From contig NC_061865.1 in NCBI RefSeq assembly GCF_907164915.1, forward strand, positions 57,928,587 to 57,992,586: DNA of 64,000 bases, given 5' to 3'. The DNA is from Impatiens glandulifera (Eukaryota > Streptophyta > Magnoliopsida > Ericales > Balsaminaceae). Below, in pieces: positions 50,331 through 64,000 of the stretch. Made by a program: the position numbers and the translations under genes. Each line of letters starts with the position of its first letter. Positions within the stretch are counted from its first letter, which is position 1. The notes beneath the pieces were generated by a model. The model was not told the DNA's origin. It made no database searches and was given only the letters and a program-made list of their open reading frames with translations.

Positions 50331-52949
50331 TGCTGCATGATTTAGATTCTTTAAAAAAAAATATTTTGTTATATTGTTTGAGATGCTTTTCAATTTTGGA
50401 CATAATGTTGACAATTTTGCTGTTTTTTTTTTTCAATTTAACCAATAGTTATTTGGAAATGGAGAATTTTTTACTTGGATTGAAATGGAATTTTTAGTGG
50501 CACCTTAATACTTAAAAAAAAATACAAATAATATATTATTTAAACTTATATTTATACTATCAAGAGATAATGTTATTCATGGTGAATTAATTTATCTAAT
50601 AAATAAAATAAAATTTAATTTATTAAATAGTAAATAATTTAAGTGATAAAAGCTATGTTGGTGGAGTGATAAAAGATTATATTTGATTTTCAATAAAAAT
50701 GTCTTAAATTAAAATAAAATACATGGGATAATTATGGGGTTTGAAAACTCCTTAAATTTTGTACGTTGTTGTTAACGTTGTTTTGCAATTTTTTTTTTTT
50801 TTGTATGTAACTTTTATTTGTTTTATTTGAATTATCAAAAGTTAATTTTTTCAAACAAATAGACTGTATTCTTTTGTAATTTTTTTTTTTGTTCTTCTCA
50901 CATAATAAGGTCATTAGTTAAAAATGGTCAAAATAATGCTGTATTTCTAATTAAATAATTACAATAACTATAAATTATACAAAAAAAATTGGAAAAATTA
51001 AATCACATTTTAATAATAGATTTTGAAAGAAAAATATTGAGAAAGAGCCAAATTTTGATATTTGATTCTAATTTGACATTTTATAATCCAATTTAAAACT
51101 AAATTACACGTTTATATCAAATTAAAAAAATATATTTATTTCACCAACTAATTAATATTTTGATAAAATGATAAAAATCTAACAAAAATACAAATTCATA
51201 TAAAACCATAATATTTTAAATTAGCTAAATTGGATGCACCATGCACGTGTGAGATAATGTCTGAAAAATCAGTGTAAAAATTATTAAGGTGGGCCATTAA
51301 TTGTTGACGCTTTGAAAAAAAAAAAAAAAGTCTAATATTTCGGCTATTATTATTATTATTATGTTTATTTATTATATAAGTCTTGTTTGTTTTTTTGTCC
51401 TTTCTTTTACTTTTTGTCTCTTTACCTACTGAAACAAGGTTTTCTGACTAGAATGAGATTTCAAACAAGGCCTCAACAACTGTTCTACGTCATCATCGAG
51501 TTGGAACATCCATCCGATTTCTTACACGTGTCCCTGTTCCGATTTTGTAAAACACCTCTGGCCTCATCTCACCGTTGATTCTCAAACAAAATGCATGCTT
51601 AAGAATTGGTCAATAAAGAGTGTACGTACGTAGTAATATGAATTATTTATAATTAAAATATTTACAAATTTCATGATAATATATATTTTTTATTTCATTT
51701 TGTTCTAACAAAAAGTAAAACGATAAATAAGAATAAAAATAAGATAATATAATAACTCGAAAAAAAAAACGCCGGTCACTATCTGAATGACTAAACAAAT
51801 ACCAGCTAACGAACCGAACCGAACCCCCACCAATCAAGAGTTTTAAAGATATCTTCAGAAAAAGTTTGCACACAATAAAATAAATGAATAATAACAAAGA
51901 TAAATAACACATAAATAGTAGAGACTAAAACGCAATAATTTATAGGCATGAGTTCGAGTCTTCCTAATTTCCTAATTGACTTCTAAAGCAAAATACACAT
52001 CAATATCTTGTTTTAATCGTATACCTAGAATTTAAATTAAAATAATTAATTATTATATTAAGAATTAAATCTAACAAACAAATCAGCCAATTTAGGTGGC
52101 TTTTAAGGCTACTTATCTTCTACAACAAATAATCCAAGGTCAAACAAGACACCTTATTAGTCAATTCCAACAAGCTTTATAATCAAGCTCAATCACAACT
52201 TTCCAATAAATTGGAATACTTTGCGATAAAATTTTAAGTATGAAAGTAAATTTTAGATGAATTTATACTCGCAAGACGATTCGATCCATCAAACACGATG
52301 ACATCACGTCTATGGGGCTAAAAATATTTATAAGAAAAAAAAAAAGTACCTTAACAATGTTTTAACCTAAAACCCTCCCAGTTAACCTAGTTAATTTGTT
52401 ATTTTTTTTATAAGTTTAATGACCTTGATTAATGGATTTTAAAATTAAATTAGGTGATCCTATAGAGAAGTATGCTCACGTATTGATAGTTGACTACTAT
52501 TTACATGTCATTTTGCATCAATATTATAATGTTACCTATATACATAAATTATAGGTTTTTTTTTTATTATGTTGATGTTATCATTATTCTTGTTTTATTA
52601 TTTTGTTAGAATATTCAAATTATTTATTTTTAAAATACAAAATTCTATATTAATTAAAATAATTGTACTACAAATTGTCCCCCACAAGATATTTCCAAAT
52701 TCAATATTTTGGGAATGATAAAGTTCAAATCCCCCTCAAGCAGTTCAGATCTTCTGCTACCGATTGCCGTGTTCCCCTGTGGCGCACCAATCAGATTGCA
52801 GCATTATTAATTTAATAATAAATAAATCTGGGCAGGAGACGGAGGGAGGGAGAATCCGGAATCCGGGTTTAGGCCCGGGTTCACACAAGACGCCGTTAAC
52901 GGAAGCGCCCGTTAACGGCAGGAAATAATATAATATTCGTTTGATACCC
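49343..52949. other. Long AT-rich spacer
   Basis: ZOP1 3' flank, then about 3.4 kb without a convincing gene. A pure (TTA)n microsatellite of about 56 bp is at 50276-50331. From about 52740 GC content rises ('ggagacggagggagggagaa', 'cgttaacggaagcgcccgtt'). The left end of the large element may lie near 52830-52950, but no terminus could be fixed. Confidence 0.45.
50276..50331. repeat. (TTA)n microsatellite
   Basis: About 18 uninterrupted trinucleotide units. Confidence 0.97.
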
Positions 52950-54110
52950 AGATAAGATATCTTCGCTCTGATCTACACGCCCGTTGCCATGACCCTCATG
53001 TAAACCCCGCATACCCACCCATGAGAAGAACGCCTGCCGTTCATGAAAATACACTTACACGTCCATGTAAAGACCGAATTGACAGTCATATTATATTTAC
53101 GTTTTTTAAATATTAATTTAATTTATTAAATAACACAGGCAGCGATATAATATTCGCTTCAAGTAATTCAATCTTTTATTTTCTTGGATTTTTTTTTTAT
53201 TTTTTTTATTTATTTTTTTTTGCCTCGAGACTCTCTGGAGCGAAGATATATTTGCTTCAATTCATTCTAATAAAAACCTCATGTAAAACCCCCCTACCCA
53301 CCCATGAGAAGACCGCTTGACTACCATGTAAAGACACTTACCCGTCTATGTGAAGACCAAAATTACATGGATTTTATATTTCCGTTTATTAAATATTAAT
53401 TCAATTAATTGAAGATGACATGCAGCAACCGAACAAATCTTCGCCTCAATTACCGGCTAGGTTTTTTTTCATATTTTTTTTTTATTTTTTTTTTTTTGCC
53501 TGGAGACTCTCTGGAGCGAAGATATATTTGCTTCAATTAATTTTAATAAAAACCTCATGTAAAACCCCCCTACCCACCCATGTAAAGACCGCTTGACTAC
53601 CATGTAAAGACACTTACCCGTTTATGTGAAGACCAAAATGACATGGATTTTATATTTCCGTTTATTAAATATTAATTCAATTAATTGAAGATGACATGCA
53701 GCAACCGAACAAATCTTCGCCTCAATTACCGGCTAGTTTTTTTTTTCCAATTTTTTTTTTTATTTCTTTTTTTTTGCCCCGAGACTCTCTGGAGCGAAGA
53801 TATATTTGCTTCCATTAAGTTTAATAAAAACCTCATGTAAAACCCCCCTACCCACCCATGTAAAGACCTATTGCCTACCATGTAAAGACACTTACCCGTT
53901 TATGTAAAGACCAGAATGACATGGATTTTATATTTCCGTTTATTAAATATTAATTCAATTAATTGAAGATGACATGCAGCAACCGAACAAATCTTCGCCT
54001 CAATTACCGGCTAGTTTTTTTTTCCTATTTTTTTTTATTTAATTTTTTTTGGCTGGAGACCTTCATGAGCGAAGGTATATTTGCTTCAATTAATTCATTA
54101 CTTTTTTTTA
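52950..54110. repeat. 277-bp tandem array preceding the BRCT gene
   Basis: About four direct copies. The landmark GAGACTCTCTGGAGCGAAG occurs at about 53227, 53503 and 53781, with a variant at about 54056, a period of 275-278 bp. The first copy (from about 52950) is clearly diverged; copies 2 and 3 are very alike. Each unit holds a T-tract, the dyad GCGAAGATATATTTGCTTC, 'ccccctacccacccatg', three near-repeats of 'catgtaaagac', and a CTTCGCC ahead of the T-tract. Confidence 0.92.
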
Positions 54111-54426
54111 TTTATTTAAATTTTTTCGCTGGAAAAGAACATTTGTTCGCCTAGACCATGTTCCATGTAAAATGGATTGAATAGTCGCTTCTCGAGAGAA
54201 CACTTATTCGCCCCTGGTCCCTGTGTCATGTTACATGGAATGAATAGTCGCTTTTCGAAAGAAGACATGTTCGCCCCGGTTACATGAATATATATACCCC
54301 CTAATATGATTATTTTATTATCATTTCCGCCCGATTCATCTCTCTCTCTTCCTGCCTCCTTTTCACGGCGATTCGTAACCGGCTCCCCGTCGACCGAACC
54401 TGAATCCACATCTTCACGACTCCACA

Positions 54427-55596
54427 ATGGTACGTATTCCTGACTAGTAGCTTTTAATATTTAGGATTATGGAACTACTACACTAGATTCTGTTATGTGA
54501 TGTTGTTGTCTCTTTAATCTTTTGGAAACCCTACTCTCAAAATGTTACCTTGACTGTAAATCCATGTTATTTAGGAAAACTTACCTAGTGTTGTGTTTTG
54601 TGATATTATTTCCCTGAAACCCTAGTACATACTCACAAAGACCGTTTTTTTTTTTCATGCACGTGCAGGCTGCCTCAGCATCCGTCCAAAACTTTGGCAA
54701 AGATTGGATTTTATGCCCAAATCAATTAACAAGTGAAGAGATAGTACTCTTCGTTACATTTCTCCCTTTTTTTTCCATATTGTTTAAGTTTTCATCCTGT
54801 TTAACTGAAATATTTATGATTGTTCTTAAACAGCACTTGATGCAACAATATGCTAACACATGTGGTGCCACGGTGTCAATGAGGTGGCGAGACGATGTTA
54901 CCCACGTCATAGCATCCACCGATTCTAATGGTGGATGCGGTCGCACTATCAAAGTATTGAAGGGCATATTGAACGGGAGTTGGGTCCTTACCATTGATTG
55001 TGAGACTCTGTTATTCTTAACCCTTTACTGTTAACTCAATATTCATTTTCACATATATGAAACTAAAAACACCTATTGCTTTTATACAGGGATAAAATCA
55101 TCAATCAGATTTAACTGTTACGTGGACGAGGAACCATACGAGGTGCAGCGAGATAATCATGGGACTGTGGGCGGTCCAAGAGCTGGCAGAATGCGTTATT
55201 TGAACAATGTAAGTTTTGTCTTATTCCCTCCTCCATATGATATTCAATTGTCCATCATTACTAATAATGTATTGTATTTTCTTTCAGCTGCCCAAACTCT
55301 TCGACAGTTACACCTTCATATTTGCAGGGGAATTCATCCCGGCTTACAAACTTGATCTTATGGGGTTTGTAATTGCTGGAGGAGGTACAACTAAAGAAAT
55401 GGAGAATCCATTTGTCGAGCCCGAGGACGACAAAACTATAGTTGTATACGACAAGTCTAGGCACGATGTTAATGAACTTGTTTGGGTATTTGAGGCAGAG
55501 AATCCTCTGAAGACATATTTGGATGTGTTTGGTGTTCCTCACACAAGCTTGCTAGAATCCATTGCTGCTTGTGATTTGCAGCCTTTGTTTTTGTAA
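54427..55596 (+). CDS. Small tandem-BRCT protein, BRCA1/BARD1 type
   Basis: Five exons: 54427-54429 (ATG alone), 54669-54743, 54834-54999, 55090-55208, 55288-55596; 672 bp, 223 residues, phases close exactly. BRCT-1 is about residues 8-92: DWILCPNQLT, CGATVSMRWRDDVTHVIAS, then RTIKVLKGILNGSWVLTIDW with the conserved Trp82. BRCT-2 is about 122-222: PKLFDSYTFIFAGEF, LMGFVIAGGGTTKE, VWVFEAENPLKT. The linker with EEPYEVQRDNHG and GGPRAGRMR matches plant BRCA1 and BARD1 C-termini. Those proteins repair DNA and carry an N-terminal RING and other regions; all of that is absent here. Such a module alone would be expected to bind phosphopeptides. It lies inside the dyad-rich region, so it may be element cargo. 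Functionality is unproven, but no disabling change is seen. Confidence 0.82.
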
Positions 55597-56161
55597 TAGA
55601 CATGTGTTGGTTTAATTTGTTACTTAATATTTGAATATTTTGCATTCTTGAAAATTCAATGTCATATTTGATTTCAGAATTATGTTTTTTGTTCTTCGAA
55701 TTGTTTTTTTTTAAACATCAGCCTTATATTTAACTAAATCTTGAAACATTAACAAATACTGTATAACTTGAAGTATAAATTTGATAAATAATTAATATTT
55801 TTTAAAACTACTGTCAAAATAATATTTGTAAAACAATTGTCAAAACAATAATGTGAAGAAATCTTCGCTTACTGATTGATTGATTGATTTATTAATTTAA
55901 TTTCATAATAATTTTTGTCATTTAATTATTAAAATGAAATAATTTTTTTAACAAGTCACCTCACCGCCACCTAACACCTGCCACCTTTTCATTAAATGCT
56001 GCATGCAGCAAGCCATGCTGCTAAGCTAGACAACTTTGTACTCTTCTCTCTCTCTACTGTACGACCATTTCTTCGCCGGAGTTATACTACATTGTCTACC
56101 ATCGACCTCTCCTTCGCCGGAGACTTCATTATAATATCAATCCGTCTTCCTAAATTATAAA
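55597..56161. other. Spacer and putative promoter of the transposase
   Basis: AT-rich, then GC-richer 5' UTR-like DNA from about 55970. It contains a half dyad 'atcttcgctt' at 55858 and twin 'cttcgccgga' words at about 56071 and 56111. No gene. Confidence 0.5.
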
Positions 56162-58901
56162 ATGGTATGTTTTTGAATGTCATCTATACCTCCTTTACTT
56201 TTCTTCCCAACCTTTTCTATGTTTTTTGAATACTCGACATGAAATGTTCTGTTCTTTTTGATTATCAGGAAGGAATACGTATCAGCGAGAATGATATGGA
56301 CGAGAATGATATTATTGATTTAAGGTAACATTGTTTAACTTCTCCAATTTTTGTAGTGCACATGTAAGCGAAGATCTCTTCACTACTATATTATGAGATA
56401 AAATCTTATGAAGCGAAACTATATTCGCCTAATATTACAATCTTCATACTGTTGAAGTGAAGCTTTCTTCGCTTATATTGTTTTCATTTTCCAATAATCT
56501 ACAAACCTCTATTTTCCACTTGTTCAAACTGAACAGCGAATCTGCTACTTGTCGTCGTCAATTGAATTTCGATGGAAACGGCCAACCTTTGGAGGACATC
56601 GAATCCAACTTAATTCCACTTTTAGGTAGAGAATTTGAGAGTGAAGAAGAAGGCTACGTATTCTACTTAGCATACGCTAAACTAATAGGATTTGGTATAA
56701 GGCGCAGTTCAAAACATGTAGACAAGGAGGGTAAAATACTGGATAGAGTTTTTTGTTGTAGTGCACAGGGTGAACGGGGAAAGGACAAACGTGATGTCTA
56801 TGTGAAACGTAGACGTTCTGTGACTCGGTTCTGTTGTGAAGCGAAATTGAGGATAAAGCGTGCAGACAATGGAAAGTTCCAAGTGGTAAATTTTATTAGT
56901 GATCATAGTCATCCTCTTGCAAGTCCAAAGAAAACTCACCTGTATAGATGCCATAGGAATATTTCTGCAGTTGCAGGCTTACATATCGAGATGGCCACTA
57001 ACGTGGGAATTCCTCCTAAGTCATCACATGCTCTAATGTCTAAACAAATCGGTGGAAGGGAGAATCTAGGTTTTCTTCCTGAGGATTACAAAAATTACCT
57101 GCGCACGAAAAGAACCAGAGAGTGTAATTTTGGGGAAACAGGGGGTGTATTAGAGTATTTGCAGAACAAACAATCCAATGATCCTGGTTTTTATAATGCT
57201 TTTCAACTTGATGCGGACGATTTGATAACGAATATATTTTGGTGTGATTCCAACATGCGGTCCGATTATTCATACTTCGGAGACGTGGTCAGTTTTGACA
57301 CCACATACAAGAAGAATAATGAAGGTCGTCCAGTTGCGCTTTTTGTAGGTGTCAATCATCACAAACAATCAATTCTTTTTGGAGCAGCTCTATTATACGA
57401 TGAAACTGCGATGACTTTTGATTGGTTGTTTGAGACTTTCACCAAAGCTATGCATGGGAAAAAACCAAAAACCATTCTTACAGATCAAGACGCGGCCATG
57501 GCTAAGGCCTTGGCGTCTCAATGGCCCGAAACAAATCATCGTCTCTGTATTTGGCACATATTTCAAAATGCAGCCATACATCTTAGCTCGGTGTTCCATA
57601 ATTTCAGAGATTTTTCTAAGGATTTTTCTTCGTGTATATATGATTTTGAAGAAGAGATAGAGTTTGTTGAAGCTTGGAATCAAATGTTGACAAACTACGG
57701 GCTTGAAAACAACGATTGGTTGAAACGCATGTTTAGCATCAGGCGAAAGTGGGCATTAGTGTATGGACGACAAATGTTTTGTGCTGATATGACGACAACA
57801 CAGAGAAGTGAGAGTATGAACAGTATGTTGAAAAGGTACTGCTCATACAAACACAAGTTTTTAGAATTTTTCAAACACTTTGAAAGACTACTTGATGAAA
57901 GAAGATATGATGTGTTGAAGGCTGATTTCAAATCAATTACCAGCCAACCAAGTCTTAACTATCCAGTTTTGATCTTAAAGGATGCCTGCAAAGTTTACAC
58001 CCCAGAGGTCTTTAAGTGCTTTGAACAACAATGGTTTATGTCGCATGATTGTGGTGTTGAAATGTTAGAGGATGTTGACACACACAGAAAATACAAGGTA
58101 ACACCCCACACTAGGAGATGCTCTCATACAGTTACAGTTCATAAGAATGACGATAAGAATATCGAGTGTAGCTGCTGTAAATTTGAATTTGGAGGGATTT
58201 TGTGTGCTCACATCCTAAAGATTTTCACAACGATTGACGTGTTGAAGATTCCTCCGGCGTTGATATTGAAGAGGTGGACAAGAACAGCCAAAGATGGAAT
58301 ATTTGGAACTGATCCAACCGTGGACAGTACTAATGTTGATCCGAGTGAGCTTCATAACATAAGATACAGAGATTTGTGTGGGTTGTCCATGCATTTATTT
58401 AACAAGGCAGCCGAAAGAGATGACACTTACAATCATGTCAAAGAAATCATGCTGAGCCAGTGCACGTTTGTGGATAAAAAATTGCAGGAGAGTTTAAATA
58501 TGCAAACTCCACCAACCGGTTTATCACGTTCGGCCGAGGGTGCCCCTGTGCAAGCAAAAGGAATGAAAACTAAGAAGCCAACAAAGTCGGGTAAGAGAAG
58601 GAAAGGTGGACTGGAGAAGAACTCAAGAAAACGAAAATCAACAAGAATAACTAGTGAATCACATATTCCGGTATGAAATTGCTGACTTACCCTTCTTTAC
58701 TAATAATTGTGTTATTAATATTCATATAATAACATAGTTTTAAATAAATTTGATCTTCCTTTCCAGCCATCAAGTGCAATGCCAACGACAACTCCTCAGT
58801 TCTCAACTCCTCAACAATGGGACGAAAGTTTCAGCATGGACGCCAATACTCCGTTCACTGTTCTTTTGTCATCTCAACTATCGAATTCCAGTTTCATGTG
58901 A
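56162..58901 (+). CDS. FAR1/MULE-type transposase (FRS-like)
   Basis: Mutator-superfamily transposase in the FAR1/FRS clade. Four exons: 56162-56164 (ATG alone), 56269-56324, 56537-58670, 58767-58901; 2328 bp, 775 residues. The FAR1 zinc-finger DNA-binding domain is about 50-145 (FESEEEGYVFYLAYAK, FCCSAQGERGK, CCEAKLRIKR, ISDHSHPL). The MULE core follows with the DDE-type acids Asp274 (SFDTTYKK), Asp336 (LTDQDAAM) and Glu445 (QRSESMNS), and the CIWHIFQNA motif between them. SWIM finger: Cys564-x-Cys566 and Cys576-x-His578. The C-terminus is Lys/Arg-rich (SGKRRKGGLEKNSRKRK), a nuclear signal. Nothing is disabled, so an active enzyme is possible. A domesticated FRS light-signalling regulator would look similar. 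Neighbouring ULP gene and repeats favour a transposon. Confidence 0.9.
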
Positions 58902-59713
58902 AATCTGATATGTATATAGTATTGTATGTACGTTGGATTTGAAACAAAGAATAAGGTCGAATGTATGCATGCGAAGTTTTATGAAATACCAAATGAATGA
59001 CCACACTAATTCATTTCTAAAAAATTACAAACACCTATATGAATCGAATATTTATTCGCCCCAAGTGAACTAATATTAAGTATCCTTTTAGTTGCAAATT
59101 GAGAAAATGAAACATAATACTGAGGCGAAGATGTTTTCGCTTGAACCTAACCATCTTTGTCTGATGAAATTTATCTTTATGTTGAAACTGGTATTTACAT
59201 GTCGTGGTAAGTGCAGTGACATGACAAGTCATCCCGCTTCTCATGGATGAGATGGTGGCTTTACATTATCAGTAACGTGAGGCGAATATGTATTCGCTTC
59301 ATCGAAAATATGTATTAGAGGCGAATATTTATTCTCTTCATATTTCTTTCATGAAATTAGAGGCTTCACATACATATTTTATGAAGAGAAGGTGTTTGAA
59401 GCGAATATTTATGCGGCTCATGTTTATTTCACTTAATTTATTCATTTAAGTTTTAACACATAATTGAACAAGTATTTGAAAATCAAATTTCATAAAAAAA
59501 ACACTTCATGTAAACACGTTCCTAAGTGTGAGGATGTGAAGTAACAATTTTTTAGAATTGAAATTACACAACATATTCTTTATTGTAACAATAAATCATT
59601 ACAATTATAGGAATAGTTTAATTACCCCATCTGTCTATGAGTACATTATTGTACTCATGTGAACTAAAATAATTTGTAAAATTTAATTACACAATATGTA
59701 TACAGTTCCTAAA
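58902..59713. repeat. Convergent intergenic region with dyad cluster
   Basis: 812 bp between the 3' ends of the transposase and protease genes. It holds five copies of the dyad: 'gaatcgaatatttattcgcc' (59041), 'ggcgaagatgttttcgcttg' (59124), 'ggcgaatatgtattcgcttc' (59281), 'ggcgaatatttattctcttc' (59320) and 'agcgaatatttatgcggctc' (59400). Both transcripts may end here and their tails could overlap. Confidence 0.75.
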
Positions 59714-62700
59714 TCATTGACTTATCCATTTACGGCAGGAATTGTAGACCTCGCTCCTTGCCTTGTTGAGCTCCGAGCCAATGACACGCCAACAGTATTC
59801 CATCCTCAATGTCCTTATTTGGTTCCTTACATTTCTTTTAACTCCAAAGCCAGTTTTCCACCCCTTCACCTCACCTTCATACGTCTCCATGTGTCTCATG
59901 CAATAAATGCCGCAGTCAGTGTAATTCTTTGAATCCTGCCATGGCAATTTCAGACATGTCTTTTCCAAACCGCCATACTTTTTACCAAGAACGGGGTCTA
60001 CGTCGTTCATATATTGTTGAATGTAGTCATCCTGATACATCATTACAAACAACATTATGTAATGTATTTTAGTTCTACTAGAATTCCAAAATTGAACTGT
60101 TTTAAATTTTAATTGTAGTGTCATACCAAGATTTGTGCATTCTTATATCTTCTTTCAAAGGGCGATTGCATAGGTGACTCGCGGTTATCAATTACTTGAA
60201 ATTGCCTTTGTATGAAGTTATAGCAAACAAGGTAGAAATGTCTGTCATCAATGATTGGGAAAAACAACTGTGGATAGAATTAGAAAAGATTAGATTTGAA
60301 CTGAGTGGTAAATGATATTATAAGGTATGACAGCCAAAGATGTACTTACGAGGTCCACTTCCCAGAGGTCCATTTTTGAAATTTGGAAAGCACGACCTTC
60401 TAGACAGAACCTGTCATTGAATTTTTCTCGCGTAGTTATCCCACCTTCACGAAAAATCTGTTTACAGCAGTCTTTAGTCTCACAAGAATAACATAATTGA
60501 TAAATAACAGTGCTAGTACAACTTACGGTGAGCACGGTTGTGTAGAAAATCTTCTTGTAACGAGATTTGACATTTTTCCTACAAAGGTTGTGCAAAATGT
60601 ATGACCAAACATCAATAATCATACTGTCTACCCAGGTTTCATTAGCCATTGTGAGCATGTCCCCGCGCGTCACGTGTAGACATAGGTGTTCCGCAATAAA
60701 TAACATTTCACTGCATGGAAACAGCAAAACATTTTTCAAGATGGTGTGCAATTCCTCTTTTTTATGAATAATTAAGCATTTGCAGCAAACATTACCTTGG
60801 ATCAAGTCCTCCAGCAAATACGAAACCCACAAAAATCTTCTGAAAGTTTGTTAGTTTCTTGTCATCCCTAAACATTTTATTGAATTGTGGTGTTTTCAAA
60901 GCTGTAGGCAATTCCAATGCTTTAACCCATTCTGTCGTTCGCATGTTTGGACGAGAAGAGCCAGTTTGAAGTGGCGGTAGTACACTGGAGATGCCTTCTT
61001 CCGGTTCATTCTTTACTATCTCCAAAGAATAGGCGGTGTGAAATGGCGTTAGTAGACTGGAGATGCCTTCTTCAGGTTCATTCTTCACTGTCTCCAATGA
61101 CGAGGCGGTTTGAAGTGGCTGTGGTAGACTGGAGATGCATTCTTCAGGTTCCTTTTTAACTATCGCCAAAGAAGGGGAGTTTTTGTTGGTTTCGGTTTTG
61201 ATGACATCGGTTAACCAATCAGTTTTCAAATTTCGTGGGGCTTTTCTTTGGACATTTAAGGCCTTTGAAGGTCCTGCTTCCTCATTTTTTTGGATAATTA
61301 GGGTAGGAGGCAAGGCTGGGGTGGTTGTAGTGCTGGGGTTCGTGTTGGTTTCTGTTTTGGGAGTAATTGGGTTGGCTTTGGTTTTGGCTTGTGCCATTGG
61401 AGGGGTTGTGGTTTTGAGTGGAGGAATGGGGTTTGCTTTGGGCTTGTCTTGTGCCATTGGAGGGGGTGTGGTTTTGAGTGGAGGAATGGGGTTTGCTGAG
61501 GGCTTGTCTTGTGCCAATGTAGGGGGTGTGGTTTTGAGTGGAGGAATGGGGTTGGCTTTAGGCTTGTCTTGTGCCAATGGAGGGGGTGTGGTTTTGAGTG
61601 GAGGAATGGGGTTGGTTTTGGGCTTGGCTTGTGCCATTGGAGGGGGTGTGGTTATGATTGGAGGAATGGGGTTGGCTTTGGCTTGTGCCATTGGAGGGGG
61701 TGTGGTTTTGAGTGGAGGAATGGGGTTTGTTTTGGGCTTGGCTTGTGCCAATGGAGGGGGTGTGGTTTTGTGTGGAGGAATGGGGTTGGCTTTGGCTTGT
61801 GCCACTGGAGGGGGTGGGGTTATGATTGGAGGAAGGGGGTTGGCGTTGGCTTGTGCCATTGGAGGGGGTGTGGTTTTGAGTGGAGGAATGGGGTTTGTTT
61901 TGGGCTTGGCTTGTGCCATTGGAGGGGGTGTGGTTTTGAGTGAAGGAATGGGGTTGGCTTTGGCTTGTGCCACTGGAGTGGGTGTGGTTATGATTGGAGG
62001 AAGGGGGTTGGCGTTGGCTTGTGCCATTGGAGGGGGTGGGGCTGGGGTTTGGGTAACTGTTTTGAGTGGAAGGGGGTTCTTGTGGGATTGGGGTGTTGGT
62101 GTGAGGGTGGGTTGTGTGTGGTCTAGGGTGTTTAGAGGATGGGTGTTGGATTTGGCTTGGTTGTCTGCGTTCATATTTTTTTGGATGTTGGGAGAAAGTG
62201 TGCTCTTGTTGGATGGGGCCGTTGGTGGGTGGTTGGCTTTTGTCTTCGTTTCGGTGGAGGGGGTGAATGTGTTCTTGTTCGATGGGGCCGTTGGATTGGT
62301 GTTGGCATGGTTGTTGGTAGGAAGGGTGTTGCCTTTCGCTTGGGTGGTGGCTTCCGTGTGGGGGTTAATGCCACTTCCTCTGGGCTGCTGCTTTTTGTTT
62401 TGGTCCAGACTCCGCTGTAAGCCTTCCCTCAGGATTGCATTGGAGTTTAGCACCGTGGCCAAGGGCTCAAACGCAGACTGTACAAGTTCCATGGCGTTTA
62501 TCTGGTGCATCTCATTCAGATATTTAGCCCCTTGTGCCAATTCTTCGGCAGCGGCAGCAACCTTCCTCAAACATGACGCCAGGTTTTGTGTAATTGGAGC
62601 ATGCTCAGTTGGATGGTCATCTCCAGTTTGTGGTGGTGTTGGCTGCACATTTTGTTGCATCGGTGGTTGCTCATTCGGCATGGCTATGCGAGCAACCACC

Positions 62701-63948
62701 CTACCATGTCCAAACCCCCCCTGTGCAGCCTCATACTCAACCCTTTCGTACATCTTCTTCTCGTCCCAGCATCCTAGAATAGGAAAACTCCTTGAGATCT
62801 TACTGTTTACCTTGAACTCAACCACACGGTCCAAGTAGCACAACTGATACATTAGCATGAACAAATATATGTTACGTTCAAAGTCATCAAAAAATTATGA
62901 ATGGACAACCACCAGCAAATAGATTTCTACACTCACCAAAAGAAAGGTTAATGGTCCATGGAAATAGGATGTCTTCTTTGCTTTCCACTTATAAACACTG
63001 TCGACTAGCCCGTCTAACGTGAACTTGCACCAGTTGTAGTCTTTGATTTTAGATACATCCTGGAGGGATTTCAGTACTTTGAATCTGAAAATAAAAAAGT
63101 AGTGACTCAAGCCATGTAAAATGATATTGAAGTTCTAAATGAGATCACAGAATTAATGCTAGGTTCTTTGGGTTTACCTGCACTGTGGATTTTGGGATGT
63201 CCACAAAAAACTGGATACAACAAACACCACGAAGTCCATCTTGAAGTTACTGTCTCCTTCTGTGTTCTGTAGAATTTTGTCAGGCATGTGGTAGGTTGAA
63301 GGACCTCCACTGTTCTCGAATCCCCATCTCCTTCTCCACGCCGTGAGATGTTCCTTGTACACCTTGTCGTCCGTGTGATTTCCTAAACACTCTGCCACAA
63401 CTAATTCACCTCTGGGTATGTTCAATACACATTGAACATCCTCTTCATCAATCTGCATCTCCTCTCCACTGTGTAGGACGATGCTCCTCCTTCTGGGATT
63501 GAATAGACTCACAATGCACCGTGAGAATTGAAGTGGGCATTTTGATATGCCAAGTGACAGAAGGGAACCAAATCCGATGTCCTTCACAGCCTGCTTCTGT
63601 TCTTCAGATAACCTGTTAATCAGGTGATGAAGGCCCGATGGAGAGGTTCTGCTCTTGAAATCGACATCAGGGTCACGAGTCCTTCTTCTTTTCTTCTGAA
63701 CCTGGTTCTCACTAAGTGCTTCATTCGCCGCGTTGGCCAGAATATCCAGTGGTGTCGTGGGCGTGCCTGATGCATCGGGTTTTCGTTTCCTTTGTTGAAC
63801 ACTACATTATCATTAGCAAATTGGATTACTTACCTAATCCAAATAGAGTCAAATTTTAACAATTGTAACATTCGCGTAATTACCTTAGTGTGTTCACTTC
63901 AGTCGTGGATTCAGTATATGGAACTATTTGCATATCGGAATCCTGATT
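59714..63948 (-). CDS. ULP1-like cysteine protease of a Kaonashi-type element, 5' end missing
   Basis: Large protein with a C-terminal C48 (SUMO-protease type) domain. Visible exons: 63884-63948, 63178-63801, 62937-63084, 60796-62843, 60527-60710, 60350-60457, 60127-60267, 59714-60031; 1211 residues, all phases consistent, start outside the window. Order: basic signal KKRRRTR; a plant DUF1985-like domain (VKDIGFGSLLSLGISKCP, EDVQCVLNIPRGE); a Pro-rich tract with 12 repeats; three VKxEPEE repeats; then the protease with DDRHFYLVCYN (His1069), VIDNRE (Asp1086) and DSKNYTDCGIYC (Gln near 1138, Cys1146), numbered from the first visible residue. The triad is intact, though the usual Trp after His is Phe. 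ULP genes travel with plant MULEs (Kaonashi), which matches the convergent transposase. Activity and substrate are unknown. Confidence 0.85.
60960..61165 (-). repeat. Three coding repeats with SUMO-consensus sites
   Basis: Within the protease gene three tandem units of about 26 residues read IVKKEPEECISSL, TVKNEPEEGISSLL and IVKNEPEEGISSVL, each followed by an LQTxSSLE-like tail. V-K-x-E fits the hydrophobic-Lys-x-Glu SUMO attachment motif. An IKTE just upstream adds a fourth. Confidence 0.85.
61335..62050 (-). repeat. Twelve-unit proline-rich coding minisatellite
   Basis: Units of the form PPMAQAKPKTNPIPPLKTT (long) or PPMAQANANPLPPIIT (short) repeat about 12 times, partly alternating. The variation always keeps the frame, which suggests selection for an open frame or recent unequal exchange. 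The complementary strand is also stop-free for 567 codons (61135-62838), an artefact of this composition. Confidence 0.9.
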
Positions 63949-64000
63949 CTGAGATGTTAAAGTCACATTTAGATTCTAACGACCTAAACTAAGAAAACGA

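What the first reader, a model, noticed from the sequence alone, without database searches (positions are those of the whole stretch)
52830..64000. Probable large Mutator-like element carrying transposase, ULP1 protease and a tandem-BRCT gene
Three gene models with complete splice phases sit together: a FAR1/MULE transposase with intact DDE and SWIM residues, a ULP1-like protease with intact His-Asp-Cys triad, and a 223-residue BRCA1/BARD1-type BRCT pair. One dyad motif fills the DNA between them and is absent elsewhere in the window. MULEs with ULP genes (Kaonashi) are known. I do not know of one that also carries a BRCT repair-type module. A transposon combining SUMO removal and phosphopeptide binding could act on host repair or silencing.
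Basis: partly seen in the sequence, partly recalled or inferred. Interest (0 to 1): 0.87.

Follow-up and report, generated by a model that had tools for sequence, protein, structure and literature searches.

The report
Giant plant transposon carrying repair-protein piece
A 22-kilobase jumping gene, found many times over in one plant genome (probably Himalayan balsam), carries a gene taken from the plant's own DNA-repair machinery beside its transposase and two SUMO-protease-like genes, which makes it a test case for how transposons may recruit host repair or silencing proteins.

Summary
The finding holds and is larger than reported. The element runs from window 52741 to window-equivalent 75539 (22,799 bp), with 1,291-bp terminal inverted repeats (99.0% identical) and 9-bp target duplications. 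Of eight other copies tested, four have exact 9-bp duplications, two nearly so, and two were undetermined. It encodes a FAR1-type MULE transposase, a tandem-BRCT protein, two paralogous ULP1-protease genes and a DUF7745-like gene. The BRCT frame is open in 10 of 10 copies read; its last exon occurs at 190 or more places. It was captured with introns from the BARD1/BRCA1-like gene of the same genome (three shared intron positions, 54.9% identity) and shows coding constraint. It has lost the pocket serine and a conserved tryptophan, so phosphopeptide binding is doubtful. The dyad TGARGCGAA-N6-TTCGCYTCA fills the element (39 sites; none in 7.2 kb of adjoining flank; eight weaker ones elsewhere in the window). 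Its arms do not vary among ten copies while other non-coding DNA does. By analogy with VANC/Kaonashi-ULP systems I infer that the ULP proteins use it against silencing. What the BRCT protein does is inferred only.

The parts
52732..52740 (.). left 9-bp target-site duplication CCCCTCAAG; its twin is at window-equivalent 75540-75548
52741..64000 (.). part of the MULE inside the window; the element ends at window-equivalent 75539 (22,799 bp)
52741..54031 (.). left terminal inverted repeat, 1,291 bp, 99.0% identical to the right one
52994..54100 (.). tandem array of about 277-bp units carrying dyads
54427..55596 (+). tandem-BRCT gene, 5 exons (54427-54429, 54669-54743, 54834-54999, 55090-55208, 55288-55596), 223 aa, captured from the host BARD1/BRCA1-like gene
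56162..58901 (+). FAR1-MULE-SWIM transposase gene, 4 exons (56162-56164, 56269-56324, 56537-58670, 58767-58901)
59714..63948 (-). ULP-A gene, exons 2 to 9; exon 1 (ATG) at window-equivalent 64039-64037 is outside the window
60954..61174 (-). 24-aa tandem repeats in ULP-A, each with a psi-K-x-E motif
61360..62038 (-). 18/20-aa proline-rich tandem repeats in ULP-A; copy number appears to vary between element copies (length 1157-1233 codons)
53138..54278 (.). dyad cluster left of the BRCT gene (11 sites of 12 or more, one overlapping shifted call not counted)
55849..55872 (.). dyad between the BRCT and transposase genes (13 of 18)
56364..56476 (.). three dyads in transposase intron 2
59040..59420 (.). 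five dyads between the transposase and ULP-A genes

Best explanation
SHOWN: an autonomous-looking, many-copy, recently amplified Mutator-like element of about 22-23 kb with 1.29-kb TIRs and 9-bp target duplications. It encodes a FAR1-type transposase, two paralogous ULP1-protease genes, a DUF7745-like gene and a tandem-BRCT protein. The BRCT gene was captured at the DNA level, introns included, from the host lineage's BARD1/BRCA1-like gene and has stayed a coding part of the element. INFERRED, likely: the ULP proteins work like VANC/Kaonashi-ULP anti-silencing factors; they (or a partner) recognise the 24-bp dyad that fills the non-coding DNA and strip repression, perhaps by deSUMOylation, from copies of the same element. 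INFERRED, tentative: the BRCT protein is a remodelled BARD1 module that competes with or redirects BARD1/BRCA1 complexes at excision breaks or element chromatin, through contacts other than the classical phosphoserine pocket.
For: Ends and duplications. Transposase: 40 scored of 676 candidates, all 99-100%. BRCT exon 5: 40 scored of 711, all identical, plus 150 others scored of 1,578, 141 without a stop. Host gene with three shared intron junctions, 54.9% identity against 41-46% to five other proteins, grouping support 0.995, dN 0.39 and dS 0.96 over both branches. 5 of 7 variable BRCT codons synonymous in ten copies picked by transposase. Dyad arms 0 of 162 columns variable, other non-coding 55 of 1,360, p 0.003. 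Two ULP genes 51% identical at the N-terminus, C48 domains above cut-off. VANC binds motifs repeated in non-coding TE DNA (PMC5735166, passages).
Against: No expression, binding, methylation or transposition data. DUF1985 and PMD matches of ULP-A are far below cut-off, ULP-B N-terminus matches no Pfam family and a homologue search with the ULP-A N-terminus found nothing. The element has long TIRs, unlike non-TIR VANDALs. Dyads could instead bind the transposase. At least one weak site (71309) lies in a ULP-B open frame. For c3 against own, BRCT coding (2 of 672) and intron (2 of 416) divergence do not differ clearly. dN/dS against the host covers both branches. ULP-A of c4 is out of frame in my lift-over.
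Confidence: 0.6

Rival explanations
1. The BRCT gene is a passive passenger: a transduplicated host fragment that hitch-hikes in a successful element without contributing to it.
For: MULEs often capture gene fragments (PMC6446971, passages). The BRCT branch is long (0.70 against 0.24) and key residues are lost. 9 of 150 scored exon-5 copies have a stop.
Against: Open in 10 of 10 copies; 5 of 7 variable codons synonymous, p 0.013 against an assumed 0.75 non-synonymous share; dN/dS 0.41 against the host; a neutral simulation without indels leaves no stop in about 1% of runs at 65% identity and 4% at 75%.
Confidence: 0.25
2. The dyads are transposase-binding or promoter sites, not targets of an anti-silencing protein.
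For: The FAR1-type transposase has a DNA-binding domain; dyads lie in both TIRs and close upstream of the BRCT TATA-like sequence.
Against: They also lie in transposase intron 2, between genes and far inside the element, which is how VANC motifs are placed (PMC5735166, passages). I have no binding data either way.
Confidence: 0.3
3. Ordinary neighbouring loci: a FRS gene, a ULP gene and a BRCT gene that happen to be adjacent.
For: Considered because plant FAR1-related and ULP genes are common; no call supports it.
Against: Shared TIRs and target duplications enclose them in several copies; hundreds of candidate places for the transposase and the BRCT exon.
Confidence: 0.01

Closest known systems
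Jittery-like MULEs with a ULP gene (grapevine Jitvine families; PMC2528002, passages)
   Same: MULE related to Jittery with a ULP coding sequence downstream of the transposase; large elements (Jitvine 11.9 and 14.4 kb in the table passage).
   Different: Here 22-23 kb, two ULP genes, a BRCT gene, mapped TIRs of 1.29 kb and 9-bp duplications. Phylogenetic placement with Jittery was not tested; a survey lists 39-292 bp or no TIRs for the plant Jittery group (PMC6446971, passages).
Kaonashi (KI/KIU) MULEs of Arabidopsis (PMC13317346, PMC6117577 and PMC2528002, passages; Hoen 2006 itself not seen)
   Same: ULP1-type protease gene in a MULE, in reverse orientation to the transposase.
   Different: KI-MULEs are described as non-TIR and with mudrA; here long TIRs, FAR1-type transposase, BRCT gene, second ULP gene.
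VANDAL/VANC anti-silencing system (PMC5735166 and PMC10398659, passages)
   Same: Short motif accumulated, partly in tandem repeats, in non-coding DNA of the element; a TE protein with internal repeats.
   Different: The motif here is a 24-bp dyad (VANC21: nine bases); DUF1985 membership unproven; binding and hypomethylation untested.
Plant BARD1/BRCA1-like C-terminal BRCT pair
   Same: 54.9% identical to the gene of the same genome, three shared intron junctions; best solved relatives BARD1, then BRCA1.
   Different: No RING or ePHD part; pocket serine and BRCT2 tryptophan replaced; TE-borne and multicopy.

Membership tests
Mutator-like element (MULE) | MULE transposase domain | tested here: met
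   PF10551 at 103.6 bits, E 8.4e-30
Mutator-like element (MULE) | 9-bp target-site duplication | tested here: met
   exact in own, c3, c6, c7, c10; c8 exact with one changed terminal base; c9 8 of 9; c4 and c5 undetermined; c2 not sought
Mutator-like element (MULE) | long terminal inverted repeats (usual, not universal) | tested here: met
   1,291 bp at 99.0% in the window's copy
Jittery/FAR1 group of MULEs | FAR1 domain at the N-terminus and SWIM in the transposase | tested here: met
   PF03101 72.9 bits, PF04434 32.0 bits
Jittery/FAR1 group of MULEs | phylogenetic placement with Jittery | not tested
   no Jittery sequence was aligned
Kaonashi/KIU ULP of MULEs | C48 protease domain with His-Asp-Cys | tested here: met
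   ULP-A 21.0 against cut-off 20.7 bits when cut out (19.9 in a longer piece); ULP-B 29.5 bits; triad motifs
VANC (VANDAL anti-silencing protein) | DUF1985 domain | tested here: inconclusive
   15.0 bits against 35.1; PMD 16.3 against 34.9; none for ULP-B
VANC (VANDAL anti-silencing protein) | target motif accumulated in non-coding DNA of its own element | tested here: met
   39 sites in the element, constrained arms; that a ULP protein binds them is untested
VANC (VANDAL anti-silencing protein) | sequence-specific binding and hypomethylation | not testable with these tools
   needs experiments
VANDAL / KI-MULE as non-TIR elements | no or short TIRs | tested here: not met
   1,291-bp TIRs
Pack-MULE | no transposase gene | tested here: not met
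   open transposase in 10 of 10 copies, which were chosen by that gene
BARD1/BRCA1-type tandem BRCT | two BRCT repeats of this lineage | tested here: met
BARD1/BRCA1-type tandem BRCT | phosphoserine pocket (Ser and Lys; roles recalled, not from a call) | tested here: not met
   Lys66 kept, but host CGSALS is CPNQLT, so the Ser is Asn; the BRCT2 Trp of HTW is Ser; binding itself not tested

The most novel reading that the evidence does not exclude
A transposon has domesticated part of its host's break-repair machinery. Its BARD1-derived BRCT protein, with a remodelled pocket, works with the transposase and two dyad-directed SUMO proteases to steer repair of excision gaps and keep element chromatin open. 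That would explain how a 22-kb cut-and-paste element reaches many young copies: gap repair restores the donor copy while anti-silencing protects the new ones.
Probability: 0.3. Interest if true: 0.93.

Novelty: new variant of a known kind. Interest (0 to 1): 0.83.

Why it matters
MULEs with ULP genes are known and host fragments in MULEs are common. A retained, host-derived BRCT gene inside an intact, multi-gene, very young MULE is not among the papers listed by my four searches. Those lists are capped (17 of 17, 15 of 579, 10 of 114, 10 of 44 shown), I saw listings only, and the library is partial. It would make two open questions testable in one plant: why transposon-borne ULP genes are kept, and whether cut-and-paste transposons manipulate host homologous repair. 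The dyad, with unvarying arms and a freer centre, is a ready-made candidate binding site.

Tried and rejected
The ordinary-loci reading and the reading that the BRCT gene lies outside the element were rejected by ends and duplications. BRCT, transposase and ULP-A all begin with an ATG followed at once by an intron. A shared origin of the BRCT and transposase leaders was checked and no convincing DNA similarity found (best hits 11-15 bp). Folding the ULP-A N-terminal exon alone gave mean pLDDT 41.4 and was not used. The homologue search with ULP-A residues 60-340 returned none at E 0.01 among 846 candidates. CpG observed/expected (element non-coding 1.12, with dyads masked 0.99; host 0.69; ULP-A 0.44) is only suggestive, because host 1.5-kb tiles range from 0.28 to 1.99. 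The dN/dS of 0.21 among 21 exon-5 copies is not used as proof: the 20 other copies were hand-picked down a list ranked by protein similarity. The shared-versus-singleton contrast there (12 S:6 N against 19 S:27 N plus 1 stop) is not significant (p 0.095). A query with P0001 to find the host gene returned in its 150 listed rows only exon-3-like matches that I take for transposon copies. A genome-wide dyad count did not complete. PMC9016345 and PMC3773815 are not held; what they say is cited only through PMC13317346. A paper on the I. glandulifera genome was not found in the listings.
Full report
1. Where it is. The window is G000:C4:57928587-57992586 of a 653,902,662-bp, 1,110-contig assembly. 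The lengths of C1 (162,159,313) and C4 (61,894,379) equal the longest contigs of P0011 and P0016, both named Impatiens glandulifera. So the species is very probably Impatiens glandulifera (Balsaminaceae, Ericales); this rests on contig lengths only.

2. The gene models. BRCT: five exons with GT-AG introns, 223 residues; Pfam BRCT 40.2 bits; best solved relatives BARD1 (E 8e-15), then BRCA1. Transposase: FAR1, MULE and SWIM above cut-off; D274, D336, E445 and the SWIM CxC/CxH residues invariant among eight sequences (the catalytic role of the three acidic residues is recalled). ULP-A: C48 domain at 21.0 bits against a cut-off of 20.7 when cut out, 19.9 in a longer piece; His (DDRHFYL), Asp (QVIDN) and Cys (TDCGIYC) motifs present. 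Its first exon is an ATG at 64039-64037, just outside the window. BRCT, transposase and ULP-A begin with an ATG followed at once by an intron; ULP-B and the DUF7745-like gene do not seem to.

3. The dyad. A scan with spacers of 4 to 8 gave 28 hits: 17 in 53141-59400, all with a spacer of 6, and 11 elsewhere, 4 of them with a spacer of 6. With the consensus TGARGCGAA-N6-TTCGCYTCA, 14 places match at 15 or more of 18, all in 53138-59420; seven of them belong to the 277-bp tandem array. At 13 or more there are 27, of which 19 in 52830-59700 and 8 elsewhere in the window. At 12 or more, 22 in that stretch against a Markov mean of 4.0 and a maximum of 12 in 100. None of the 19 touches a modelled exon, though exons are 6,620 of 11,171 bp. 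The whole element has 39 sites of 13 or more, 23 of them of 15 or more, and 52000-52740 and 75540-81999 have none; a weak site at 71309 lies in a ULP-B open frame. In ten aligned copies, nine sites between 55849 and 59420 have arms varying in 0 of 162 columns, centres in 2 of 54, other non-coding columns in 55 of 1,360 (Fisher p 0.003; with gaps 72 of 1,360, p 5e-4). The copies are related, so the p-value is only a guide.

4. The element. The left end, CAGTTCAGATCTTCTG at window 52741, is the same in 9 of 10 copies, with unrelated DNA before it; c5 gave no match to the probe. In the window's copy the mirrored end lies at window-equivalent 75539, followed by CCCCTCAAG, the nine bases that precede 52741. 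Length 22,799 bp; TIRs 1,291 bp at 99.0%. Of eight other copies sampled at the right, c3, c6, c7 and c10 have exact 9-bp duplications, each different; c8 has the duplication but one changed terminal base; c9 matches at 8 of 9; the right end of c4 and the left end of c5 were not in the fetched pieces. c2 loses similarity at about window-equivalent 60200 and I did not seek its right end. The lengths obtained (own, c3, c6, c7, c9, c10) run from 22,118 to 22,799 bp. Beyond the window, on the minus strand, lie a DUF7745-like gene (frames 67908-69115; 21.4 bits, below the cut-off of 26) and ULP-B (frames from 69933 to an ATG near 73764, not fully spliced here; C48 29.5 bits). The N-termini of ULP-A and ULP-B are 51% identical over 171 aa (E 2e-58).

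5. Copies. Transposase: 676 candidates, 40 scored, all 99-100% over 2,241 bp. BRCT exon 5: 711 candidates, 40 scored, all identical over 309 bp. With the BRCT protein 150 of 1,578 candidates were scored and 529 matches found; the 150 rows listed are exon-5 matches at 90-99%, 141 without a stop, and by their coordinates none is among the 40. That makes at least 190 places; complete elements were mapped in only a few. The BRCT frame is open in the window's copy and the nine others read; c4, c5, c6 and c9 have one extra codon. ULP-A is open in 7 of 8 other copies where it could be lifted; c4 is out of frame, which may be real or a fault of my alignment; c2 could not be lifted.

6. Origin of the BRCT gene. 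The ePHD part of P0002 finds three places in the genome (7 candidates, all scored); the best is C5:50701332 at 67%. In L065, just downstream, lie BRCT exons whose three internal junctions (after EDK; inside the Trp codon after TID; between NN and LP) fall where those of the transposon gene fall; the last host acceptor is a double CAGCAG, so its exact base is open by one codon. The transposon protein is 54.9% identical to this gene over 215 residues and 41-46% to five other proteins. The two group with support 0.995; branches are 0.70 (transposon) and 0.24 (host). So the last exons were captured as DNA from the lineage's own gene. TE against host: dN 0.39, dS 0.96, over both branches. Among ten copies chosen by transposase, 5 of 7 variable BRCT codons are synonymous. 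Own against c4: coding 3 of 672, BRCT introns 7 of 497, next spacer 24 of 556; own against c3 shows no clear contrast (2 of 672 and 2 of 416). A neutral simulation without indels leaves no stop in 1.2% of runs at 65% identity and 4.2% at 75%. The gene evolves fast but looks kept. Host CGSALS and HTWLLES read CPNQLT and HTSLLES in the transposon copy; the lysine is kept. I therefore do not support phosphopeptide binding as such.

7. How it most likely works. The transposase moves the element (family knowledge). [quoted passage not shown] A review says KIU genes are VANC genes with a Ulp1 domain and act alike (PMC13317346, passages). ULP genes downstream of the transposase, in both orientations, occur in grapevine MULEs, Jittery-like ones included (PMC2528002, passages). 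The BRCT protein might redirect BARD1/BRCA1-type complexes at excision gaps or element chromatin; that step is inference alone.

8. What it is not. It does not meet the non-TIR feature of VANDAL and KI-MULEs, nor the lack of transposase that marks Pack-MULEs. DUF1985 membership of the ULP proteins is unproven.

9. Verdict. The element, its ends, its copies and the captured gene are shown; the anti-silencing and repair roles are hypotheses with defined tests.

Noticed in passing
window 60940-61220, minus strand (ULP-A): All four psi-K-x-E (SUMO consensus; meaning recalled) motifs of ULP-A lie in one stretch just before the protease domain, three in 24-aa tandem repeats (VKKEPEE, VKNEPEE, VKNEPEE); shuffle p 0.024 for the whole protein. 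Seven open copies have 3 or 4.
   Followed up: partly
54427, 56162 and window-equivalent 64039: Three of the element's genes begin with an ATG followed directly by a phase-0 intron; no clear DNA similarity between the BRCT and transposase leaders.
   Followed up: partly
window-equivalent 65017-65526 and 66752-67231 (L009): Direct repeat of about 500 bp at about 82% inside the element, each copy with dyads.
   Followed up: no
window-equivalent 80563-81999 (L030:8564-10000): A long plus-strand open frame with FAR1-like sequence about 5 kb right of the element, possibly another MULE or FAR1-related gene (not searched against families).
   Followed up: no
window 52892-52919: The 10-bp palindrome CCGTTAACGG occurs twice, 6 bases apart, inside the left TIR (sequence; inverted match).
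   Followed up: no
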